This document shows positions 7,005 to 60,494 of a DNA stretch of 60,543 nt, in pieces; position 1 is the stretch's first letter; every line of letters begins with the position of its first letter. Below the pieces are notes generated by a model. It was not told the DNA's origin and searched no databases. It saw only the letters and a list, made by a program, of their open reading frames with translations. Origin of the DNA: a virus; the IMG/VR virus record IMGVR_UViG_3300044655_001046, positions 1-60,543 of that record. One strand, written 5' to 3'. The position numbers and the translations under genes are program-made.

Positions 7005-10000
7005 TTATTCCTCTACTATTAATGAAGGTACATCTTTTCTTTCTGCCGTTATATCCCAAAAGAATTCGTATTCTTTAGTAAAAATGCTAGTAGTTTCGTC
7101 AATACCCACTGTAAACCGATTTTCTTTAATGTTAATGTCTTCTACCCATAATACTTTACCGTGTTTAATATTTGTTAATTGAATATTAACATCTTCTTCA
7201 TGAACCAAATCTCTAAAGTAATATGGTAAGGTTACTACTCCTTTTCCGTTAATAACTTTTCCTTTACCTGTTAATCTTACTCCGTGATATGGAGATTCCA
7301 ACGAACCATATCTTAATCGTTTATTTGGATCGGAAGGATGAACGATATCGAACGATTTTGTGGTAGCATTTAATGCACCCGAAATACCAACGCCACCAGT
7401 TACAATTAATGTTCCTGTTGTAGTATTAGTAGAAGCAGTATTTGCAGTTAGAGTTAATGTATTTGCTTTAGCAGTCCCCACAACTTCAAATTTGTAATTT
7501 GTAGTATTAGAACCAATTACTACATTACCCGAATTTAAAATTGCTAATTGGATATTATTTGCTGAGTCTCTAAACCAATGATTGGAATTTGAAGGTCTAC
7601 CAGAAACATAATTCATTCCGTGAGACAATCCGGCGAATTCTGAACCATAAAAATCGTATACTATTCTTGAAGTCGTATAACCAGAATAATTGACTTTAAA
7701 ATTGATGCCAGTAGCCCAACCAGAAGAATTGTCTAATGTTAGAATTGGTACACAAGCACCGGCGCTTTCGGTTATGTGTAACTTTGTTGTTGGTGTTGTT
7801 GTCGCAATCCCAAACCTACCATTTGCAACATCAAACGCAAACGCATTATTAGTATATCCAGCAAGAGTTCCGGAAGTAGCAGAAACCAATTGTGGATAAT
7901 ATGTTCCAGAAGTAGCGTTGGTTATTACTTCAAAATTAGCGACATTGGCAGTTAAATTTGACGCAGTTCCAGTTAAACCAGTTCCTTCTCCATAGAACGT
8001 AGTGGCATATAAATTACCATCGTAATTTAATCTAGTAGTATTTGTTGGTGCAGTTGAACCACCATCAAACTGACCAGCAGTTTTCGTAGTTCCATTATAT
8101 TCAATAAACGATGGAGTTGTGGAACCAGCGGTAACACCTCTATCGCCCGGAATTGTTCCTGTAGTCAAATTCGAAGCATTAGAAGCGTTTGTGTTTGTGG
8201 TATTTGCTTGGTTATAAGCAGAGTTTGCTTGGATAAATGCTGCAGTAATAGAAGTATTCTGAGTCGCGTTTATATTTGTTTGCAGAGTATTATTAGAACT
8301 TAACCAACTTGTTAAATTAGTAATATTTGTGTTCTGGGTAACATCAGTTCCTTCAATGACAGTCAATCTTGTATTTTGAGTATTATCTACTCCTTGTATA
8401 TTAGATATTGTTGTGGATGTTAGTACATCTATTCCGTTAATTTTATAGGTTTTACCAGAAGCAATGTCAATATTTTCGCTAGAAGTCCACGAAGAAGTTG
8501 CGTTAATCCAATTCCAAGTTTTATCTGTTGTTCCTCTAACAGTAATACCACCGCCATCAGCAGTAATATTCGTAGGAGAAGCAACATTTGCTAAAGTTAT
8601 GTTCTTGTCTTCTACAGCAATAGTATCAACATCAAGAGTGGTTGTAGTGCCTTGAACCGCAACATTACCAGTAATAACAACATCTCCTGTGATTGTCCCA
8701 CCAGAAGAACTAAATTTAGTATTAGAAGATAAGAATGCGGCATTAGCATGAGTAAATGCTGCTTGAGTAAATGTGTTTTGAGTAACATCAACACCTTCAA
8801 TAACAGTCAATCTTGTATTTTGGGTATTATCAACTCCAGCAATCAAACTTACATTAGAACTTAACCATGATGTTAAATTGCTAATATTGGTGTTCTGAGT
8901 AACATCAACACCTTCAATAACAGTCAATCTTGTATTCTGAGTATTATCTACTTCCTGTATAGATAATATATTTGTATTTTGGGTATTATCAACTCCAGCA
9001 ATCAAACTTACATTAGAACTTAACCATGATGTTAAATTGCTAATATTAGTATTTTGGGTAGTATTAATTCCCTGTAATAATGTTACATTAGAATTTATTA
9101 CATTATTGGTGTAAATTAAATTGTTTGTATTAGCAGTATCTGTATACCCTGTATAATAACTACCATGTTCGCCATCTAATTTATCGGAATTGCCAACATC
9201 TAAATTCGATTGAGGTTTATTCTCCCATCTATTATTCGCACTCCAAATAATAACATCGTTTGCTGAAATATTAGTAATCTTAACGTCACGTGCTTCTGAT
9301 AATTCATATCCAAAATCTGGACGAACCATCAAAATGCCATTATTAGAAGATGGAGAATTAGAAACTCTAACAACTGCTGCTAATGTTATAGCATAATCTG
9401 GGGCAGTAGGTCTTGTATTAGAAAATGCTCCAGGATTGTTATTATCTAGATATAAAATATCTCCAAGAGAATAATTGTACGTGTCAACGTCATTAACCTT
9501 ACCAAACCAAGTTACATATCCCCAATTATTTTGAGGAATAGTTTGGGTGGCAACACCAACAATCCATCTAGGTTCAAATCCAGTAACTTGTGTATTTGCT
9601 AATCTTAATAGAAGACCATCTCCTTGAGCGCCAGCGAACATAACAATTTTACCATTTTGGATGGTTTCTGTTGCTCTACCATAGATATGAGATTCTTGTC
9701 CTACTTGTAATGTAACTCCATTTAGTAGTTCCATATCATATGTTGAATATGTATTATTCCACGAGATATTTTTCAATCCCTCGGAAGAGTTCATATACAA
9801 TCCATTTAAAGAAATAAATGAATTTGCATCTCTTACGACTACAGTATTTGCAGCGTTTGATGTTGCAGTATTATAACCATCGAGTAAATCTACGTTGAGA
9901 TTTTCAACTTTTGTAGTTGATGAGACGGTTAGAGGTGGAGTTCCCGTAGAAACAAGAGCTGTTAATGTATTGGTTGATACATTATTGGCAGAAACAATAT

Positions 10001-53958: not shown

Positions 53959-54639
53959 ATGATATCGTTTAAAAGATTTCTTGAAGAAGGCGTACATTCT
54001 GATTTCGCAAAATCCCTCTCGCACGAAGATTTATTCAAACATCTGGAAACCCACGCAGACCCAAACGATAAAGCGTCTGATCACTGGGCTGATAGAAAAG
54101 CCGCAATACTAAAAGAATTGCACAAAAGGCATTCTTCTAAAGAAGAAGGATTTCATTCCCTCGGTAAGGAATATGTAAAAAACTCCGGACACGATCATTC
54201 TATATTGGATCGTTTTCTTTCCCATCACGCAGATTCTCCTTCTCCTTATGTCAAAAGAACTGCTGAAAGTTTGTTGGCGAAAATTGGTAAGCCAGTAATT
54301 CCTCAACAAAAACCAAAACAGGAAAAACCCGCTCCAAAAGAAAAGGTAAAAAAAGAAGTAGAAACAAAACTTGATACTTCTATACATCCAGAAGGAAAAT
54401 TGGAATCTGAAAAAGGAGATACGTCAGAACATGGCGGTTCTTCAGAAGTTACCCACATTTTCCATAAAACTCAAGACGGTAAAAGGAAAAAGGTTGCTAC
54501 AGTAGTTTCTACAGAAGACTCTCATACGCCACATATTGTAAAGAATGGCAAATTATCCCCGATTGAAACCCCATTCAAACACAAAACTCACAAAGAAGCA
54601 GTATTAAGGGCAATTAAAACTGTAAGAGACACTCAATAA
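53959..54639 (+). CDS. Candidate internal head protein with capsid-targeting-like N-terminus (copy 1)
   Basis: A 226-residue hydrophilic protein. Its N-terminus, MISFKRFLEEG, fits the capsid-targeting peptide of T4 internal proteins (M-x-T/S-Y/F-x-x-F-I/L-x-E), and L-E-E before Gly is a plausible prohead-protease site. Residues 20-110 are helical and His/Lys-rich with a HEAT-like SPYVKRTAESLLAKIG. Residues 112-150 are a Pro/Lys/Glu linker, and residues 160-226 a small domain (VTHIFHKTQDGKRKKVATVVS...HKEAVLRAIKTVRD). The same architecture recurs in the protein at 59790, so they are paralogues. It is a single late unit with its own promoter and strong terminator. I infer packaging in the head and possible injection. 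Confidence 0.7.
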   Translation: MISFKRFLEEGVHSDFAKSLSHEDLFKHLETHADPNDKASDHWADRKAAILKELHKRHSSKEEGFHSLGKEYVKNSGHDHSILDRFLSHHADSPSPYVKRTAESLLAKIGKPVIPQQKPKQEKPAPKEKVKKEVETKLDTSIHPEGKLESEKGDTSEHGGSSEVTHIFHKTQDGKRKKVATVVSTEDSHTPHIVKNGKLSPIETPFKHKTHKEAVLRAIKTVRDTQ

Positions 54640-54647
54640 TAAGAATT

Positions 54648-54677
54648 GGTGGAAGTTATCCTGCTTCCACCATTTTT
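54648..54677 (+). terminator. Strong terminator after the first capsid-targeted protein
   Basis: GGTGGAAG and CTTCCACC make a perfect 8-bp stem with an 8-base loop, followed by ATTTTT. It overlaps the 3' end of the convergent 69-residue gene, whose last codons form part of the stem. Confidence 0.9.
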
Positions 54678-54865
54678 AAATCGAAATATTTTGCCGCATT
54701 TTCTGCGATTTCTTTCGTTTGGAAATAATTAAACATCTTCTTACCGTATTTGGTTTGGGTGTATATAACCCACTGCCCCCTAAACGGAAAATCTTCTTTC
54801 TGTTCGATAAAATATAAGGTTTCTGTTTCTAATGGTTCTAATTTATCTGGTTGATTTTTTGCCAT
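54656..54865 (-). CDS. Small protein, last gene of the lipid-remodelling operon
   Basis: A 69-residue protein, MAKNQPDKLEPLETETLYFIEQKEDFPFRGQWVIYTQTKYG..., with no family I recognise. I use the ATG at 54865, which overlaps the stop of the glycosyltransferase gene as TGATG; a GTG one codon upstream is also possible. Aromatic-rich beta strands (LYFIEQ, QWVIYTQ) precede a helix (KEIAENAAKYFDLKMVEA). It has no signal peptide or membrane segment. Its coupling to agt suggests cotranscription, not necessarily the same pathway. Confidence 0.65.
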   Translation of the reverse strand: MAKNQPDKLEPLETETLYFIEQKEDFPFRGQWVIYTQTKYGKKMFNYFQTKEIAENAAKYFDLKMVEAG

Positions 54866-55881
54866 CACTTTTCAACTAAATTATTTTTAAAAATTTCCGT
54901 ACACTTTTTCCAAGTCCAATTATAAGATTCATCTTCAACGTATTTTCTGGATAATTCCATTGCAGCATTAATTTCGCTAATGCCAAAATCATCTACCAAA
55001 TATCCGCTCTTACCTTCCTTAATAATTTCTTCTGATACCGTTCCTTTATATGCTAATACTGGGGTTCCAGACGCTATAGCTTCTAATTGAGTTAATCCAA
55101 AAGTATCGTTTTTAGAAGGAAAAATAAAAACATCAGCATTAGCATAAGTTTCTGCTAAGTCTTTACCAGTTCTTTTTCCAACAAAAGCAATCGCTTCGGA
55201 ATGATACTTATTCATCAATTCTTTTAGATAAGGACCATCACCAACCAAAACTTTTAGATACCCGTCTGGAATAGGTATCTTACAAAAATCATCCAATCCC
55301 TTTTCTTTAGAAATCCTACTAACACAAAGAATAATTTTAAGAACAGTACCTTTTAGTCTATTTCTATAAGTAGAATTAAACGCTTTTCTATCAACCCCTC
55401 TTTTCCAAACAATCAAATTATTGAATCCTTTATCCATCAACAATTGTTTAATCTTATTAGTGGGAACCAAAACGTTTTTAGATTTAGAATGAAACCATCT
55501 AAAATAAGGATATGTTAATCCCGAAGGAACTTTAAACATATCTTGAATGAATTCTGGAAACATTGAATGATAAGAAGTTGTATAGTTATAACCTTTCTTA
55601 TCACAATATAGTTTTCCCGCAAGACCAACTGGACCTTCGGTTGCTATATGTATGTAATCTGGATTAATACATTCGATTTTATTACCAATCTTATAAACAT
55701 TTAAAGAAATATCTATCTCTTTATAAAATGGCAAAGAAATTCTATTGAAATGATGAGGATTAATCCAATATATATCAAAATCTTTATTTAAAATATCGGT
55801 TGTAGTTTTTAGAGTTCTAACAACTCCATTAGTTTGTTTCTCTGTAGTATCTGTTATTATTAAGAGTTTTTTCTTTTGCAT
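54865..55881 (-). CDS. agt: GT4 glycosyltransferase, Agt-like (diacylglycerol glycosylation)
   Basis: A 338-residue GT-B fold glycosyltransferase of family GT4. N-terminal acceptor-side motifs NGVVRTLKTT, YIHIATEGPVGLAGK and TTSYHSMFPEF...YFRWFH, and the donor-side GDGPYLKEL and DTFGLTQLEAIASGTPVLAY (D-x7-E, Asp259 and Glu267), are the pattern of alphaproteobacterial glycolipid synthases such as Agt. In SAR11 and other marine bacteria, Agt adds a sugar to diacylglycerol made by PlcP when phosphate is scarce. Here it lies just downstream of a PlcP-like gene in one operon, which strongly supports that pairing. It would act at the inner membrane. Substrate (glucose, glucuronate, mannose) cannot be read from sequence. 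Confidence 0.8.
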   Translation of the reverse strand: MQKKKLLIITDTTEKQTNGVVRTLKTTTDILNKDFDIYWINPHHFNRISLPFYKEIDISLNVYKIGNKIECINPDYIHIATEGPVGLAGKLYCDKKGYNYTTSYHSMFPEFIQDMFKVPSGLTYPYFRWFHSKSKNVLVPTNKIKQLLMDKGFNNLIVWKRGVDRKAFNSTYRNRLKGTVLKIILCVSRISKEKGLDDFCKIPIPDGYLKVLVGDGPYLKELMNKYHSEAIAFVGKRTGKDLAETYANADVFIFPSKNDTFGLTQLEAIASGTPVLAYKGTVSEEIIKEGKSGYLVDDFGISEINAAMELSRKYVEDESYNWTWKKCTEIFKNNLVEK

Positions 55882-56039
55882 TGTTTATCCAGTTTATACC
55901 ATTTAAAATCTATTTCATACTTAATTGTTGATGCTGATTTTTCGCAAAGTTCTTTCGTTGGGAATTCCATTACAAGTTTAGCAGGAATATCATTAGAGTT
56001 TAACGTATTAACTGCCGTTAGAATTAATATCCATTCCAT
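55860..56039 (-). CDS. Small possibly exported protein between plcP and agt
   Basis: A 59-residue frame starting MEWILILTAVNTLNSNDIPAK at 56039; a longer reading would need a TTG at 56072. It overlaps the plcP 3' end by 32 bases and the agt start by 22, so it is embedded in the operon. The first about 15 residues are hydrophobic and two cysteines (LCEKS, KQCKR) follow, fitting a small exported or membrane-anchored protein. No clear Shine-Dalgarno. Family unknown. Confidence 0.55.
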   Translation of the reverse strand: MEWILILTAVNTLNSNDIPAKLVMEFPTKELCEKSASTIKYEIDFKWYKLDKQCKRKNS

Positions 56040-56796
56040 CTTTTTTATCTTGAGTAAATTTATCCCACACAATTATTTCAAAAGTACCATCGAAATTTTC
56101 CACCAATGCCGTACAACTTTCTACCCAATCTCCATCATTCATGTATTCTATTCCTTCTATCGTCTTTATTTCTGCATGGTGAATATGTCCAGCTATAACT
56201 CCATCATAAAATTTTCTTTTAGAATATTCAACAAGATTTTTTTCATAATCGAAAATAAAATCTACAGCACCTTTTACTTTATGTTTCAATACTTTACTAA
56301 AAGACCAATACCCAAATCCAAATTTATGCCGTAACCAATTATATTTTGAATTTAAATCTAAAACTAGATCATAAAGTTTATCCCCAAGAAATCCAAGCCA
56401 AGGAGCAATTTTACTGATTCCATCAAACATATCTCCATGAATTACAAGATACCGTTTACCGTTTATACCGATATGCTCAGTTTTATTAAGAAATTCTATT
56501 TTACCAAAAGATATTCCGTGAGGAAGAACCGGACGAAGAAACTCGTCGTGATTACCTACAACATATATTATTCTAGTCTTCTTAGATAGTTTTAAGATAA
56601 ACCTTATAACATCTGTGTGGGATTTTTTCCATTTCCATTTATTTTGTTGAATTTTCCAACCATCTATTATATCTCCAACAAGATATAAGGTATTGCAGGA
56701 GTTATGTTCAAGAAAATTAAGCAGTAAATCGGCTTTACAATCTTTACTACCTAAATGTGTATCGGAAATAAAAATGGCTCTATATTTGTTTCGCAT
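56008..56796 (-). CDS. plcP: Calcineurin-like phosphoesterase of the PlcP type (phospholipase C)
   Basis: A 262-residue metallophosphoesterase. Metal ligands are visible in order: SDTHLG (Asp12, His14), GDIIDG (Asp42), GNHDE (residues 81-85), VIHGD (His120) and GHIHHA (His204, His206). The whole pattern, including YLVGDIIDGW, PWLGFLGDKLYD, YWSFSK, NDGDWVESCTALVENFDGTFEI, is that of the alphaproteobacterial family that includes PlcP, the phosphate-starvation phospholipase C that turns phospholipids into diacylglycerol. The related LpxH (UDP-diacylglucosamine hydrolase) has GNRD instead of GNHDE, which argues for PlcP. It is followed by agt in the same operon. Its ATG overlaps a tiny upstream frame (TAATG). 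Confidence 0.8.
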   Translation of the reverse strand: MRNKYRAIFISDTHLGSKDCKADLLLNFLEHNSCNTLYLVGDIIDGWKIQQNKWKWKKSHTDVIRFILKLSKKTRIIYVVGNHDEFLRPVLPHGISFGKIEFLNKTEHIGINGKRYLVIHGDMFDGISKIAPWLGFLGDKLYDLVLDLNSKYNWLRHKFGFGYWSFSKVLKHKVKGAVDFIFDYEKNLVEYSKRKFYDGVIAGHIHHAEIKTIEGIEYMNDGDWVESCTALVENFDGTFEIIVWDKFTQDKKDGMDINSNGS

Positions 56797-56897
56797 TATT
56801 CTGGAATAGTGTGTTGAATAAATTTTACTCTCTCAAAAACTGAAAGAGATAAAAATAACAATATTAAAAACTTATTCGCCTTAGTCGTTATCGTCAT
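56796..56897 (-). CDS. Tiny hydrophobic frame coupled to plcP
   Basis: A 33-residue frame, MTITTKANKFLILLFLSLSV then FERVKFIQHTIPE. It ends in TAATG with the plcP start codon, a typical translational-coupling arrangement, and has one hydrophobic segment. No good ribosome site precedes it. It may be a real leader peptide or chance. Confidence 0.3.
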   Translation of the reverse strand: MTITTKANKFLILLFLSLSVFERVKFIQHTIPE

Positions 56898-56970
56898 CCA
56901 TATTATATAAAATAAAAATTATACAAGATAAGACAATAAACGACATTGAAAATAAAAAGTTTGTTATCAT
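56881..56970 (-). CDS. Tiny membrane peptide with acidic tail upstream of plcP
   Basis: A 29-residue frame, MITNFLFSMSFIVLSCIIFI then LYNMDDDND: one clear transmembrane segment and a strongly acidic C-terminus. It overlaps the next tiny frame by 17 bases. No strong Shine-Dalgarno. The rest of the 56797-57018 gap is AT-rich with no convincing promoter that I can single out. Confidence 0.35.
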   Translation of the reverse strand: MITNFLFSMSFIVLSCIIFILYNMDDDND

Positions 56971-57018
56971 AACTTACAGTATATAGTTTTGTAATATTAA
57001 AATTAGAATACGATGATA

Positions 57019-58412: not shown

Positions 58413-59255
58413 ATGAAAATTGCATTTGCTAGCGATCTACATGTGGAGTTCCGAGAATTAGAAATCCATAATACCCAAAAAGCAGACGTGTTAGTCCTTG
58501 CTGGTGATATTATTCTTGCTTCTCGATTATACGATAAAAGCGAACGACATTTCCTAGGGGATAGAGAATTTCAATGCGGTTCTTCAGATAGATTTCACGC
58601 TTTCTTTCAACAAGTTTGTGAAGAATTCCCTAACGTAATCTACATTTTAGGTAATCATGAGTCGTATAATGACGACATTGCTAATACTTTTTCTTATATC
58701 AAAGAAAAACTTTCTTATCTGAAAAACCTTCATGTCCTGGAAAAGGAAACGTTTAAATTGAACGGGGTTACATTCGTCTGTGGAACAATGTGGACAGATT
58801 TTAATAAAAAAGACCCTATTGCAATGAATAAGATTTCTTATTTGATGAATGATTTTCAGATTATCAAGAATAGTAACAGAGAACGTACTAATGAATGGGG
58901 ATCTATTTGGCATCCAGAAGATGCGTATGAAGACCATCAAAAGTTTATGGAATTCGCCAAGAACGAATTGAATAATGAAGATAATAAAAAGGTAATAATG
59001 GTAACTCACCATTGCCCTTCTGATATTTGTGTTCCAGAAAAGTATCAAGGAGATACTACGATGAATCCAGGATATATTTCTAATCTAACAGATTTTATTC
59101 TAGATAACCCTAAAATATCCCATTGGATCTGTGGACATTCTCATCGTAGATTAAACGCTATGATTGGTTCAACCAATATTCTGATGAATTGCAGGGGATA
59201 TTCTGGACGCGAGAAAATGGCTGATTCCTTTGAATTAAGATATGTTGATATATAA
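58413..59255 (+). CDS. Calcineurin-like metallophosphoesterase
   Basis: A 280-residue phosphoesterase with SDLH (residues 8-11), LAGDIIL, LGNHESY, VTHHCPS and CGHSHRR, the five metal-binding blocks of the calcineurin-like family in order. The sequence is of the phage type common in T4-like and other myoviruses and is not closely like the PlcP-type enzyme at 56008. It may act on nucleic acid or nucleotides. It is preceded by a sigma70-like promoter and followed by a late-like element and the lipoprotein gene. Confidence 0.85.
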   Translation: MKIAFASDLHVEFRELEIHNTQKADVLVLAGDIILASRLYDKSERHFLGDREFQCGSSDRFHAFFQQVCEEFPNVIYILGNHESYNDDIANTFSYIKEKLSYLKNLHVLEKETFKLNGVTFVCGTMWTDFNKKDPIAMNKISYLMNDFQIIKNSNRERTNEWGSIWHPEDAYEDHQKFMEFAKNELNNEDNKKVIMVTHHCPSDICVPEKYQGDTTMNPGYISNLTDFILDNPKISHWICGHSHRRLNAMIGSTNILMNCRGYSGREKMADSFELRYVDI

Positions 59256-59789: not shown

Positions 59790-60494
59790 ATGATTTCGTT
59801 TAAACAACTACTAGAAAAGTTAGAGCTTTTTGAAGCCGCAAAACATAAAGAAACGCATGAAGATTCTTCTCATGAAGAAATTAAAGCAGTTCTAGATAAA
59901 CATCTAGCGAAAGAAAAACATGACGATCCAACAATGTTGACTGTTGGATATGCTCTAAAGCATTTACATCATGAAAAACATCCAGAAATTTTTCATGATA
60001 CTATGAATAGAATGGCAGGACATAAAACTGCTTATTATAGATCTATTGTTGCTGGACACCCCCATACCTCTGAAGAAACCCTTAAACAATTAGCTACAGA
60101 TAAAGCGGGTAGAGTATCAAGAACAGCCCAAGAAAATCTAGCAAAACGTTCTGGAGAAGCCCCAGCAAAACCTGCTCCTGCTCCAAAACCAACAAAAACA
60201 ACGGTTTCTAAACCAGTTACTCCTAAACCTGCTGCAAAACCTGTTGCTGGTGGATATGGTATTGAAAAGGCTGATCCAGAAGAATCTCCATTAGGGTATG
60301 ACGCGGATTCAGTACATCATATTACCCATAATGGTAAAATTGTTGGTGCTGTAACTTCTTCTAGACATGAAGATGGTGGTAGATCTATTATTAAATCTTG
60401 GAAAGGTCATCCAGACAAAGGTTTTGATCAATTGGGTAAGCATACAGATTTACATTCTGCGATGAAGCATTTGGTATCATCACACAAGCAATAA
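59790..60494 (+). CDS. Candidate internal head protein with capsid-targeting-like N-terminus (copy 2)
   Basis: A 234-residue hydrophilic, His/Lys-rich protein. The N-terminus MISFKQLLEKLELFEA fits the T4 capsid-targeting pattern, and L-F-E before Ala is a plausible prohead-protease site. A helical region with HEAT-like AGRVSRTAQENLAKRSG leads to a Pro/Ala/Lys linker (KPAPAPKPTKT) and a C-terminal small domain (VHHITHNGKIVGAVTSSRHEDGG...LHSAMKHLVSSHK). These blocks match the protein at 53959 in the same order (VTHIFHK-DGK, SPYVKRTAESLLAK). It is a single late unit with its own promoter and a strong terminator. Confidence 0.7.
   Translation: MISFKQLLEKLELFEAAKHKETHEDSSHEEIKAVLDKHLAKEKHDDPTMLTVGYALKHLHHEKHPEIFHDTMNRMAGHKTAYYRSIVAGHPHTSEETLKQLATDKAGRVSRTAQENLAKRSGEAPAKPAPAPKPTKTTVSKPVTPKPAAKPVAGGYGIEKADPEESPLGYDADSVHHITHNGKIVGAVTSSRHEDGGRSIIKSWKGHPDKGFDQLGKHTDLHSAMKHLVSSHKQ

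What the first reader, a model, noticed from the sequence alone, without database searches (positions are those of the whole stretch)
54656..56970. Phage-borne plcP-agt membrane-lipid remodelling cassette
A PlcP-type phosphoesterase (GNHDE, GHIHHA, NDGDWVESCTA) is followed in one overlapping operon by an Agt-like GT4 glycosyltransferase (NGVVRTL, IHIATEGPVG, SYHSMFPEF, DTFGLTQLE). In marine alphaproteobacteria, including SAR11, this pair swaps phospholipids for glycolipids under phosphate starvation. In a phage it could release phosphate for DNA synthesis, change the membrane during infection or block superinfection. The family calls are by pattern; the phage role is inference. I cannot say whether this has been reported.
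Basis: partly seen in the sequence, partly recalled or inferred. Interest (0 to 1): 0.88.

Follow-up and report, generated by a model that had tools for sequence, protein, structure and literature searches.

The report
Phage genes that remodel host membranes
This virus of bacteria carries a two-enzyme kit (plus a tiny conserved companion protein) that very probably strips phosphorus-containing head groups off its host's membrane lipids and replaces them with sugars; hundreds of related viruses carry such a kit, often next to phosphate-uptake genes and behind a phosphate-starvation switch.

Summary
On the minus strand of a T4-like virus record lie an intact PlcP-type phosphoesterase (56008-56796) and an Agt-like GT4 glycosyltransferase (54865-55881). 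The phosphoesterase falls with bacterial PlcP (46% identity to S. meliloti and P. aeruginosa proteins) and apart from LpxH (100/100 support; 34 bits against a 190-bit cut-off). All 13 GTcp residues shown to be essential are kept, including the Asp that marks DAG-glycosylating Agt. Both genes are under purifying selection (dN/dS 0.06-0.17).

At least 500 IMG/VR stretches encode a viral PlcP relative. In viral loci selected on the GT alone, plcP lies upstream wherever the contig is long enough (76/76). In PlcP-selected loci plcP is accompanied by this GT4 (42/80) or an unrelated GT2 (32/80), never both. About 20 viral loci carry pstS near plcP. PhoB-box-like repeats lie upstream of plcP in 51 of 222 loci (3 of 546 controls), though not in this window.

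Best reading: a phage-borne phospholipid-to-glycolipid module that frees phosphorus, in relatives under host PhoB control. Activity, timing and host are untested. I found no earlier report; viral "lpxH" genes in AMG lists may be this.

The parts
56008..56796 (-). plcP: PlcP-type metallophosphoesterase (phospholipase C), 262 aa; ligand-type residues D12, H14, D42, N82, H120, H204, H206
55860..56039 (-). conserved 59-aa ORF (ATG at 56039) overlapping the plcP 3' end by 32 nt and the GT start by 22 nt; in the viral loci searched its family is found only beside plcP
54865..55881 (-). agt-like GT4 glycosyltransferase, 338 aa; H105/D259 dyad and all 13 essential GTcp residues kept
54656..54868 (-). 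70-aa ORF overlapping the GT stop codon, present after the GT in near relatives (clusters c61 and c53); function unknown
54647..54672 (-). hairpin terminator-like site at the 3' end of the operon (reads as one on both strands, between convergent genes)
56797..57018 (-). 222-nt 5' non-coding stretch of the cassette; no PhoB-box-like repeat here, unlike in relatives L011, L080, L083, L088

Best explanation
The locus is a phage-encoded membrane-lipid remodelling operon. PlcP, a metal-dependent phospholipase C, would cut the phosphorylated head groups from host phospholipids such as PG and PE and leave diacylglycerol (DAG); the downstream Agt-type GT4 enzyme would put a sugar from host UDP-sugar on the DAG, so the membrane stays intact as glycolipid while phospho-head-groups become available to the infected cell. 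Enzyme families, linkage, conserved catalytic residues and purifying selection are shown by sequence; the two activities, the order of events, and the use of the freed phosphorus for phage nucleotides are inferred. The 59-aa companion is inferred to work with PlcP, since its family follows plcP whichever glycosyltransferase comes next. In related phages the module probably answers to host PhoB.
For: PlcP: 46% identity to the S. meliloti and P. aeruginosa proteins, 17% to E. coli LpxH; LpxH split off with 100/100; bacterial genomes that hold both genes score 246-349 bits for true LpxH and 30-56 for their PlcP, like the window's 34. GT: 13/13 residues shown essential in SAR11 GTcp (PMC8231724). 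Same gene order as bacterial plcP-agt: 26 of the 30 closest Pseudomonadota loci and the experimentally studied PA3219-PA3218 operon (PMC8528852). Linkage in phages: 76/76 testable GT4-selected loci; GT4 and GT2 replace each other. dN/dS 0.06-0.17. Phosphate context in relatives: pstS near plcP, Mosig pstS divergent from plcP, PhoB-like boxes in 51/222 against 3/546.
Against: No biochemical or lipid data. The window itself has no PhoB-like box and no PstS-type gene in its 60 kb. The GT is only about 32-42% identical to bacterial Agts, below the 46-58% within the characterised GTcp group, and 18 of 57 viral GTs have Glu in place of the hallmark Asp. A phospholipase C frees phospho-head-groups, not phosphate itself, so host phosphatases are needed. 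The host is unknown, so a supply of PG/PE and UDP-sugars is assumed.
Confidence: 0.78

Rival explanations
1. The enzymes do what is proposed, but the gain for the phage is a changed membrane (superinfection exclusion, easier assembly or lysis), not phosphorus.
For: Glycolipids from this pathway protect P. aeruginosa against polymyxin B (PMC8528852); lipid composition affects phage attachment in Ruegeria (PMC9938194, title and abstract); the window lacks a PhoB-like box.
Against: pstS near plcP in about 20 viral loci and PhoB-like boxes upstream tie the module to phosphate supply in many relatives.
Confidence: 0.2
2. An envelope-modifying pair: the phosphoesterase is an LpxH-like lipid A enzyme and the GT decorates lipopolysaccharide or another surface glycan.
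For: Database labels of phage homologs are LpxH; the nearest solved fold is LpxH; glycosyltransferases of pelagimyophages were read as O-antigen modifiers (PMC7029224).
Against: LpxH model score 34 against a cut-off of 190; all 5 true LpxH have GNRDF and GHTHRP, the window has GNHDE and GHIHHA; tree split 100/100; DAG-contact and Asp residues of Agt kept.
Confidence: 0.1
3. The genes are captured host genes without a function in the phage.
For: Such pairs are common in bacteria.
Against: dN/dS 0.06-0.17; a diverse viral clade separate from bacterial sequences, none of which exceeds 55% identity to the window; conserved linkage.
Confidence: 0.02

Closest known systems
PlcP-Agt phosphate-starvation lipid remodelling of bacteria (S. 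meliloti, Phaeobacter MED193, SAR11 HTCC7211, P. aeruginosa PA3219-PA3218)
   Same: Same two families, same order, same essential residues; phage relatives have PhoB-like boxes as the bacterial operons do (PMC8528852, PMC4796936)
   Different: Carried by T4-like phages; short extra ORF between the genes; in other phages the GT4 is replaced by an unrelated GT2; viral proteins form their own clades
Phosphate-acquisition genes of cyanophages (pstS with Pho box, PMC10976474)
   Same: Phage genes tied to host phosphate limitation, probably through PhoB
   Different: Those take up or free phosphate from outside; this one would draw on membrane phospholipid
Viral 'lpxH' auxiliary metabolic genes (PMC10653327, PMC9611531)
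   Same: Deposited phage genomes give phage PlcP that name
   Different: The sequence tests here exclude LpxH for the window protein; I did not see those papers' sequences, so their reassignment is inference
LPS-related glycosyltransferases of pelagimyophages (PMC7029224)
   Same: Phage-borne glycosyltransferases
   Different: The family most represented there is GT8; this is an Agt-type GT4 locked to plcP

Membership tests
PlcP phospholipase C | Metallophosphoesterase domain with complete metal-ligand set (D, H, D, N, H, H, H) | tested here: met
PlcP phospholipase C | Groups with characterised PlcP (S. meliloti, P. aeruginosa) and apart from LpxH | tested here: met
   (100/100); 46.3% and 45.6% identity. 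L152 is taken as the S. meliloti PlcP from its quorum-sensing neighbours (own knowledge of the locus)
PlcP phospholipase C | Manganese-dependent cleavage of PG/PE to DAG | not testable with these tools
   needs purified enzyme
PlcP phospholipase C | Phosphate-regulated expression (PhoB box upstream); common in the bacterial operons, not required for family membership | tested here: not met
   no box upstream in the window, though 51/222 related phage loci have one
LpxH | NCBIfam TIGR01854 above cut-off (190 bits) | tested here: not met
   34 bits; positive controls 246-349 bits
LpxH | GNRDF and GHTHRP motifs | tested here: not met
   GNHDE, GHIHHA; 5/5 LpxH have the LpxH form
Agt/GTcp group of GT4 | GT4 domains, GT-B fold | tested here: met
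   (pLDDT 92)
Agt/GTcp group of GT4 | Essential residues, with Asp in place of the GT4 Glu in the catalytic dyad, and DAG-contact His, Arg, Trp | tested here: met
   13/13; residue list from PMC8231724
Agt/GTcp group of GT4 | Clade with bacterial Agts, other GT4 outside | tested here: met
   98/98; viral GTs lie beside, not inside, the main bacterial group
Agt/GTcp group of GT4 | 46-58% identity to GTcp, as within the characterised group | tested here: inconclusive
   about 32-42% to the bacterial Agts compared; the GTcp sequence itself was not available
Agt/GTcp group of GT4 | Makes glucosyl/galactosyl/glucuronosyl-DAG | not testable with these tools
   needs expression and lipidomics

The most novel reading that the evidence does not exclude
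A widespread phage module, [pstS]-plcP-companion ORF-(GT4 or GT2), under host PhoB control, turns host phospholipids into glycolipids during infection; its dedicated 57-60 aa protein, not found in the bacterial operons examined, acts on or with PlcP, and much of the viral 'lpxH' signal in aquatic viromes is this module.
Probability: 0.4. Interest if true: 0.88.

Novelty: new variant of a known kind. Interest (0 to 1): 0.78.

Why it matters
If true, phages of phosphorus-poor environments mine the host membrane itself as a phosphorus store without destroying it, a source not usually counted in viral phosphorus budgets. It would also correct a likely annotation error (viral 'lpxH' read as LPS biosynthesis), give a lipid signature that can be looked for in infected cells and in field lipidomes, and make it testable whether lipid remodelling seen in nature is partly viral.

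Tried and rejected
T4-type late-promoter motif TATAAATA: 13 in the window, 12.6 expected by chance, so no inference on timing. Sigma-70 promoter scan at chance level. Strict Pho-box search of the window: none. PstS-type gene in the window: none. Two pstS scans of the loci, one with the Mosig protein alone and one with a motif filter, missed most phage pstS genes; repeated with the proteins found by the Pfam search. PDB sequence search for PlcP: nothing. The fold search cannot tell PlcP from LpxH (TM about 0.5, low confidence in the helical insert). The GT2 has no counterpart beside plcP in the bacterial loci held. Apparent bacterial members inside viral clades: L130, labelled as a flavobacterial MAG contig, has mostly phage-like neighbours and is probably a mis-binned phage; L223, a gut 'phage' record, pairs with Parabacteroides and may be bacterial. 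The Acinetobacter 'phage' GT hit (L222) sits among chromosome-like genes and outside the Agt clade. The paper on manganese dependence of PlcP (PMC6052262) is not held.

Full report
What is there. The window is an IMG/VR virus record of 60,543 bases. T4-type genes (tail, baseplate tube cap, gp59 helicase loader, single-strand-binding protein, T4 baseplate protein) show a T4-like phage; no tRNA genes. Host and habitat are unknown. On the minus strand run plcP (56008-56796), a 59-aa ORF (55860-56039), the GT4 gene (54865-55881) and a 70-aa ORF (54656-54868), each overlapping the next, closed by a hairpin terminator-like site at 54672-54647.

The phosphoesterase is PlcP, not LpxH. It scores 42 and 34 bits on the two NCBIfam LpxH models whose cut-offs are 134 and 190. 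Bacteria that hold both genes show the same split: 246-349 bits for their true LpxH, 30-56 bits for their PlcP. All five LpxH have GNRDF and GHTHRP; the window and nearly all PlcP have GNHD and GHIH. In an 83-sequence tree LpxH separates with 100/100; the window lies in a viral clade inside the PlcP family, which also holds the S. meliloti protein (L152) and the P. aeruginosa protein of the plcP-agt1 operon (L216). The P. aeruginosa pathway has been tested by mutants and lipidomics (PMC8528852).

The glycosyltransferase is Agt-like. Mutational work on SAR11 GTcp (PMC8231724) lists residues whose change to Ala abolished activity almost completely. All 13 used here are kept in the window: G19, G83, G86, H105, R161, R189, K194, D259, T260, F261, G262, E267, W324 (mapped by motif anchors and alignment, since the GTcp sequence itself was not available). 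The Asp of the dyad, Glu in other GT4 enzymes such as MshA, is found in 77 of 78 bacterial Agt-like proteins, in 39 of 57 viral ones, and in none of the three other GT4 compared. The tree puts viral and bacterial Agt-like proteins together against other GT4 (98/98). The predicted fold is GT-B with high confidence.

The genes are in use. Against relatives at 69-90% identity dN/dS is 0.06-0.18 for both genes. No bacterial PlcP above 55% identity to the window was found by a pattern scan of the species genomes (apart from two short end fragments) or in 399 Pseudomonadota genomes; viral ones in the same clade range from about 60 to 100%.

The pair is a viral unit. Of 80 loci picked on the GT alone, 76 have plcP upstream on the same strand; in the other four the GT begins 3-404 bases from the end of the stretch. 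Of 80 picked on PlcP, 42 have this GT4 and 32 an unrelated GT2 near plcP, none both. The GT2 matches Pfam GT2 and GT21 models; bacterial plcP operons with other lipid glycosyltransferases are known (PMC4796936). That one glycosyltransferase can stand in for another while plcP stays argues that the second gene uses what PlcP makes, DAG. Different loci can be near-copies of one another, so these counts are not fully independent events.

A companion ORF. A 57-60 aa family with an invariant W, D-x-P and two Cys starts inside the plcP 3' end. Of 79 loci selected on it alone 76 have plcP, the other three being cut off at the contig end; 49 of the 76 have GT2 and 23 GT4. Its codons outside the overlap show dN/dS of 0.04-0.14 in four measurable pairs, and 0.5 for window against L011. 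It was not found in the bacterial loci held. Its role is unknown; a partner of PlcP is my inference.

Link to phosphate. A Pfam scan found a PstS-type protein in 5 of 25 large plcP contigs; two tested ones pass NCBIfam PstS equivalog cut-offs (334-401 bits). A search of all viral loci found pstS within 3.1 kb of plcP in about 20, mostly directly upstream on the same strand with gaps under about 110 nt; several are near-copies of one another. Pelagibacter phage Mosig has pstS divergent from plcP. The PhoB-box-like repeat YTGTMAY-N4-YTGTMAY occurs 75 times in 2.68 Mb of loci (1-3 in shuffles), 58 of them within 300 nt upstream of plcP or pstS. With up to one mismatch, 51 of 222 deduplicated plcP upstream regions have it against 3 of 546 control stretches, most of them 20-60 nt before the gene. 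I chose this degenerate form after seeing sites near pstS, so those sites are not an independent test; the plcP-proximal set is much larger. The window has no such site and no PstS-type gene; its clade-mates L011/L080, L088 and L083 have a box upstream of plcP or of its operon. A Pho box before a phage pstS has precedent in cyanophages (PMC10976474, found).

Mechanism and limits. PlcP would make DAG and release phospho-head-groups; the GT would turn DAG into glycolipid. Freed phosphorus reaches nucleotides only if the host dephosphorylates the head groups. Shown: families, linkage, residues, selection, phosphate context in relatives. Inferred: activities, substrates, timing, benefit, host.

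Novelty. No paper found in the held library joins plcP with phages as carriers; that library lacks most subscription papers and all preprints. Papers list viral 'lpxH' as LPS biosynthesis in surface waters (PMC10653327) and in Lake Baikal viral-fraction transcripts (PMC9611531); phage PlcP bears that name in deposited genomes, so these may be the same gene. The enzymes are known; their phage-borne form, tied to phosphate genes and with a companion protein, is a new variant.

Noticed in passing
L130 (genome contigs, labelled Muricauda sp. TMED12 MAG): Contig stretch with plcP and agt whose neighbours mostly match phage proteins; probably a phage contig binned into a bacterial genome.
   Followed up: partly
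L048, L024 and related loci: In many phages plcP sits between or beside ribonucleotide-reductase and thyX-like genes, i.e. within the nucleotide-synthesis module (named by reading the sequences, not by a family search).
   Followed up: partly
L063:2160-3044 and 8287-9027: A viral contig with two plcP copies, each followed by its own copy of the small companion ORF, each preceded by a PhoB-box-like site.
   Followed up: no
window 58413-59255 (+): A second, unrelated phosphoesterase of the phage family phrog_1649 (3.9e-56); not PlcP.
   Followed up: no
window 53959-54639 (+) and 59790-60494 (+): Two similar proteins beginning MISFK, each with a TATAAATA site shortly upstream; no family match for the first (the second was not scanned).
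   Followed up: no
L141 (Pelagibacter phage Mosig) 4900-6735: Isolated SAR11 phage with pstS and plcP back to back but no Agt-like gene next to plcP; a cultured system for testing the idea.
   Followed up: partly
viral GT4 set: 18 of 57 viral Agt-like enzymes have Glu in place of the hallmark Asp, a change that cuts GTcp activity by over 90%; they may use another donor or acceptor.
   Followed up: no
L065: A viral contig with amyloid-repeat (curli-like) genes before plcP and a RimK-like ATP-grasp gene after it instead of a glycosyltransferase.
   Followed up: no
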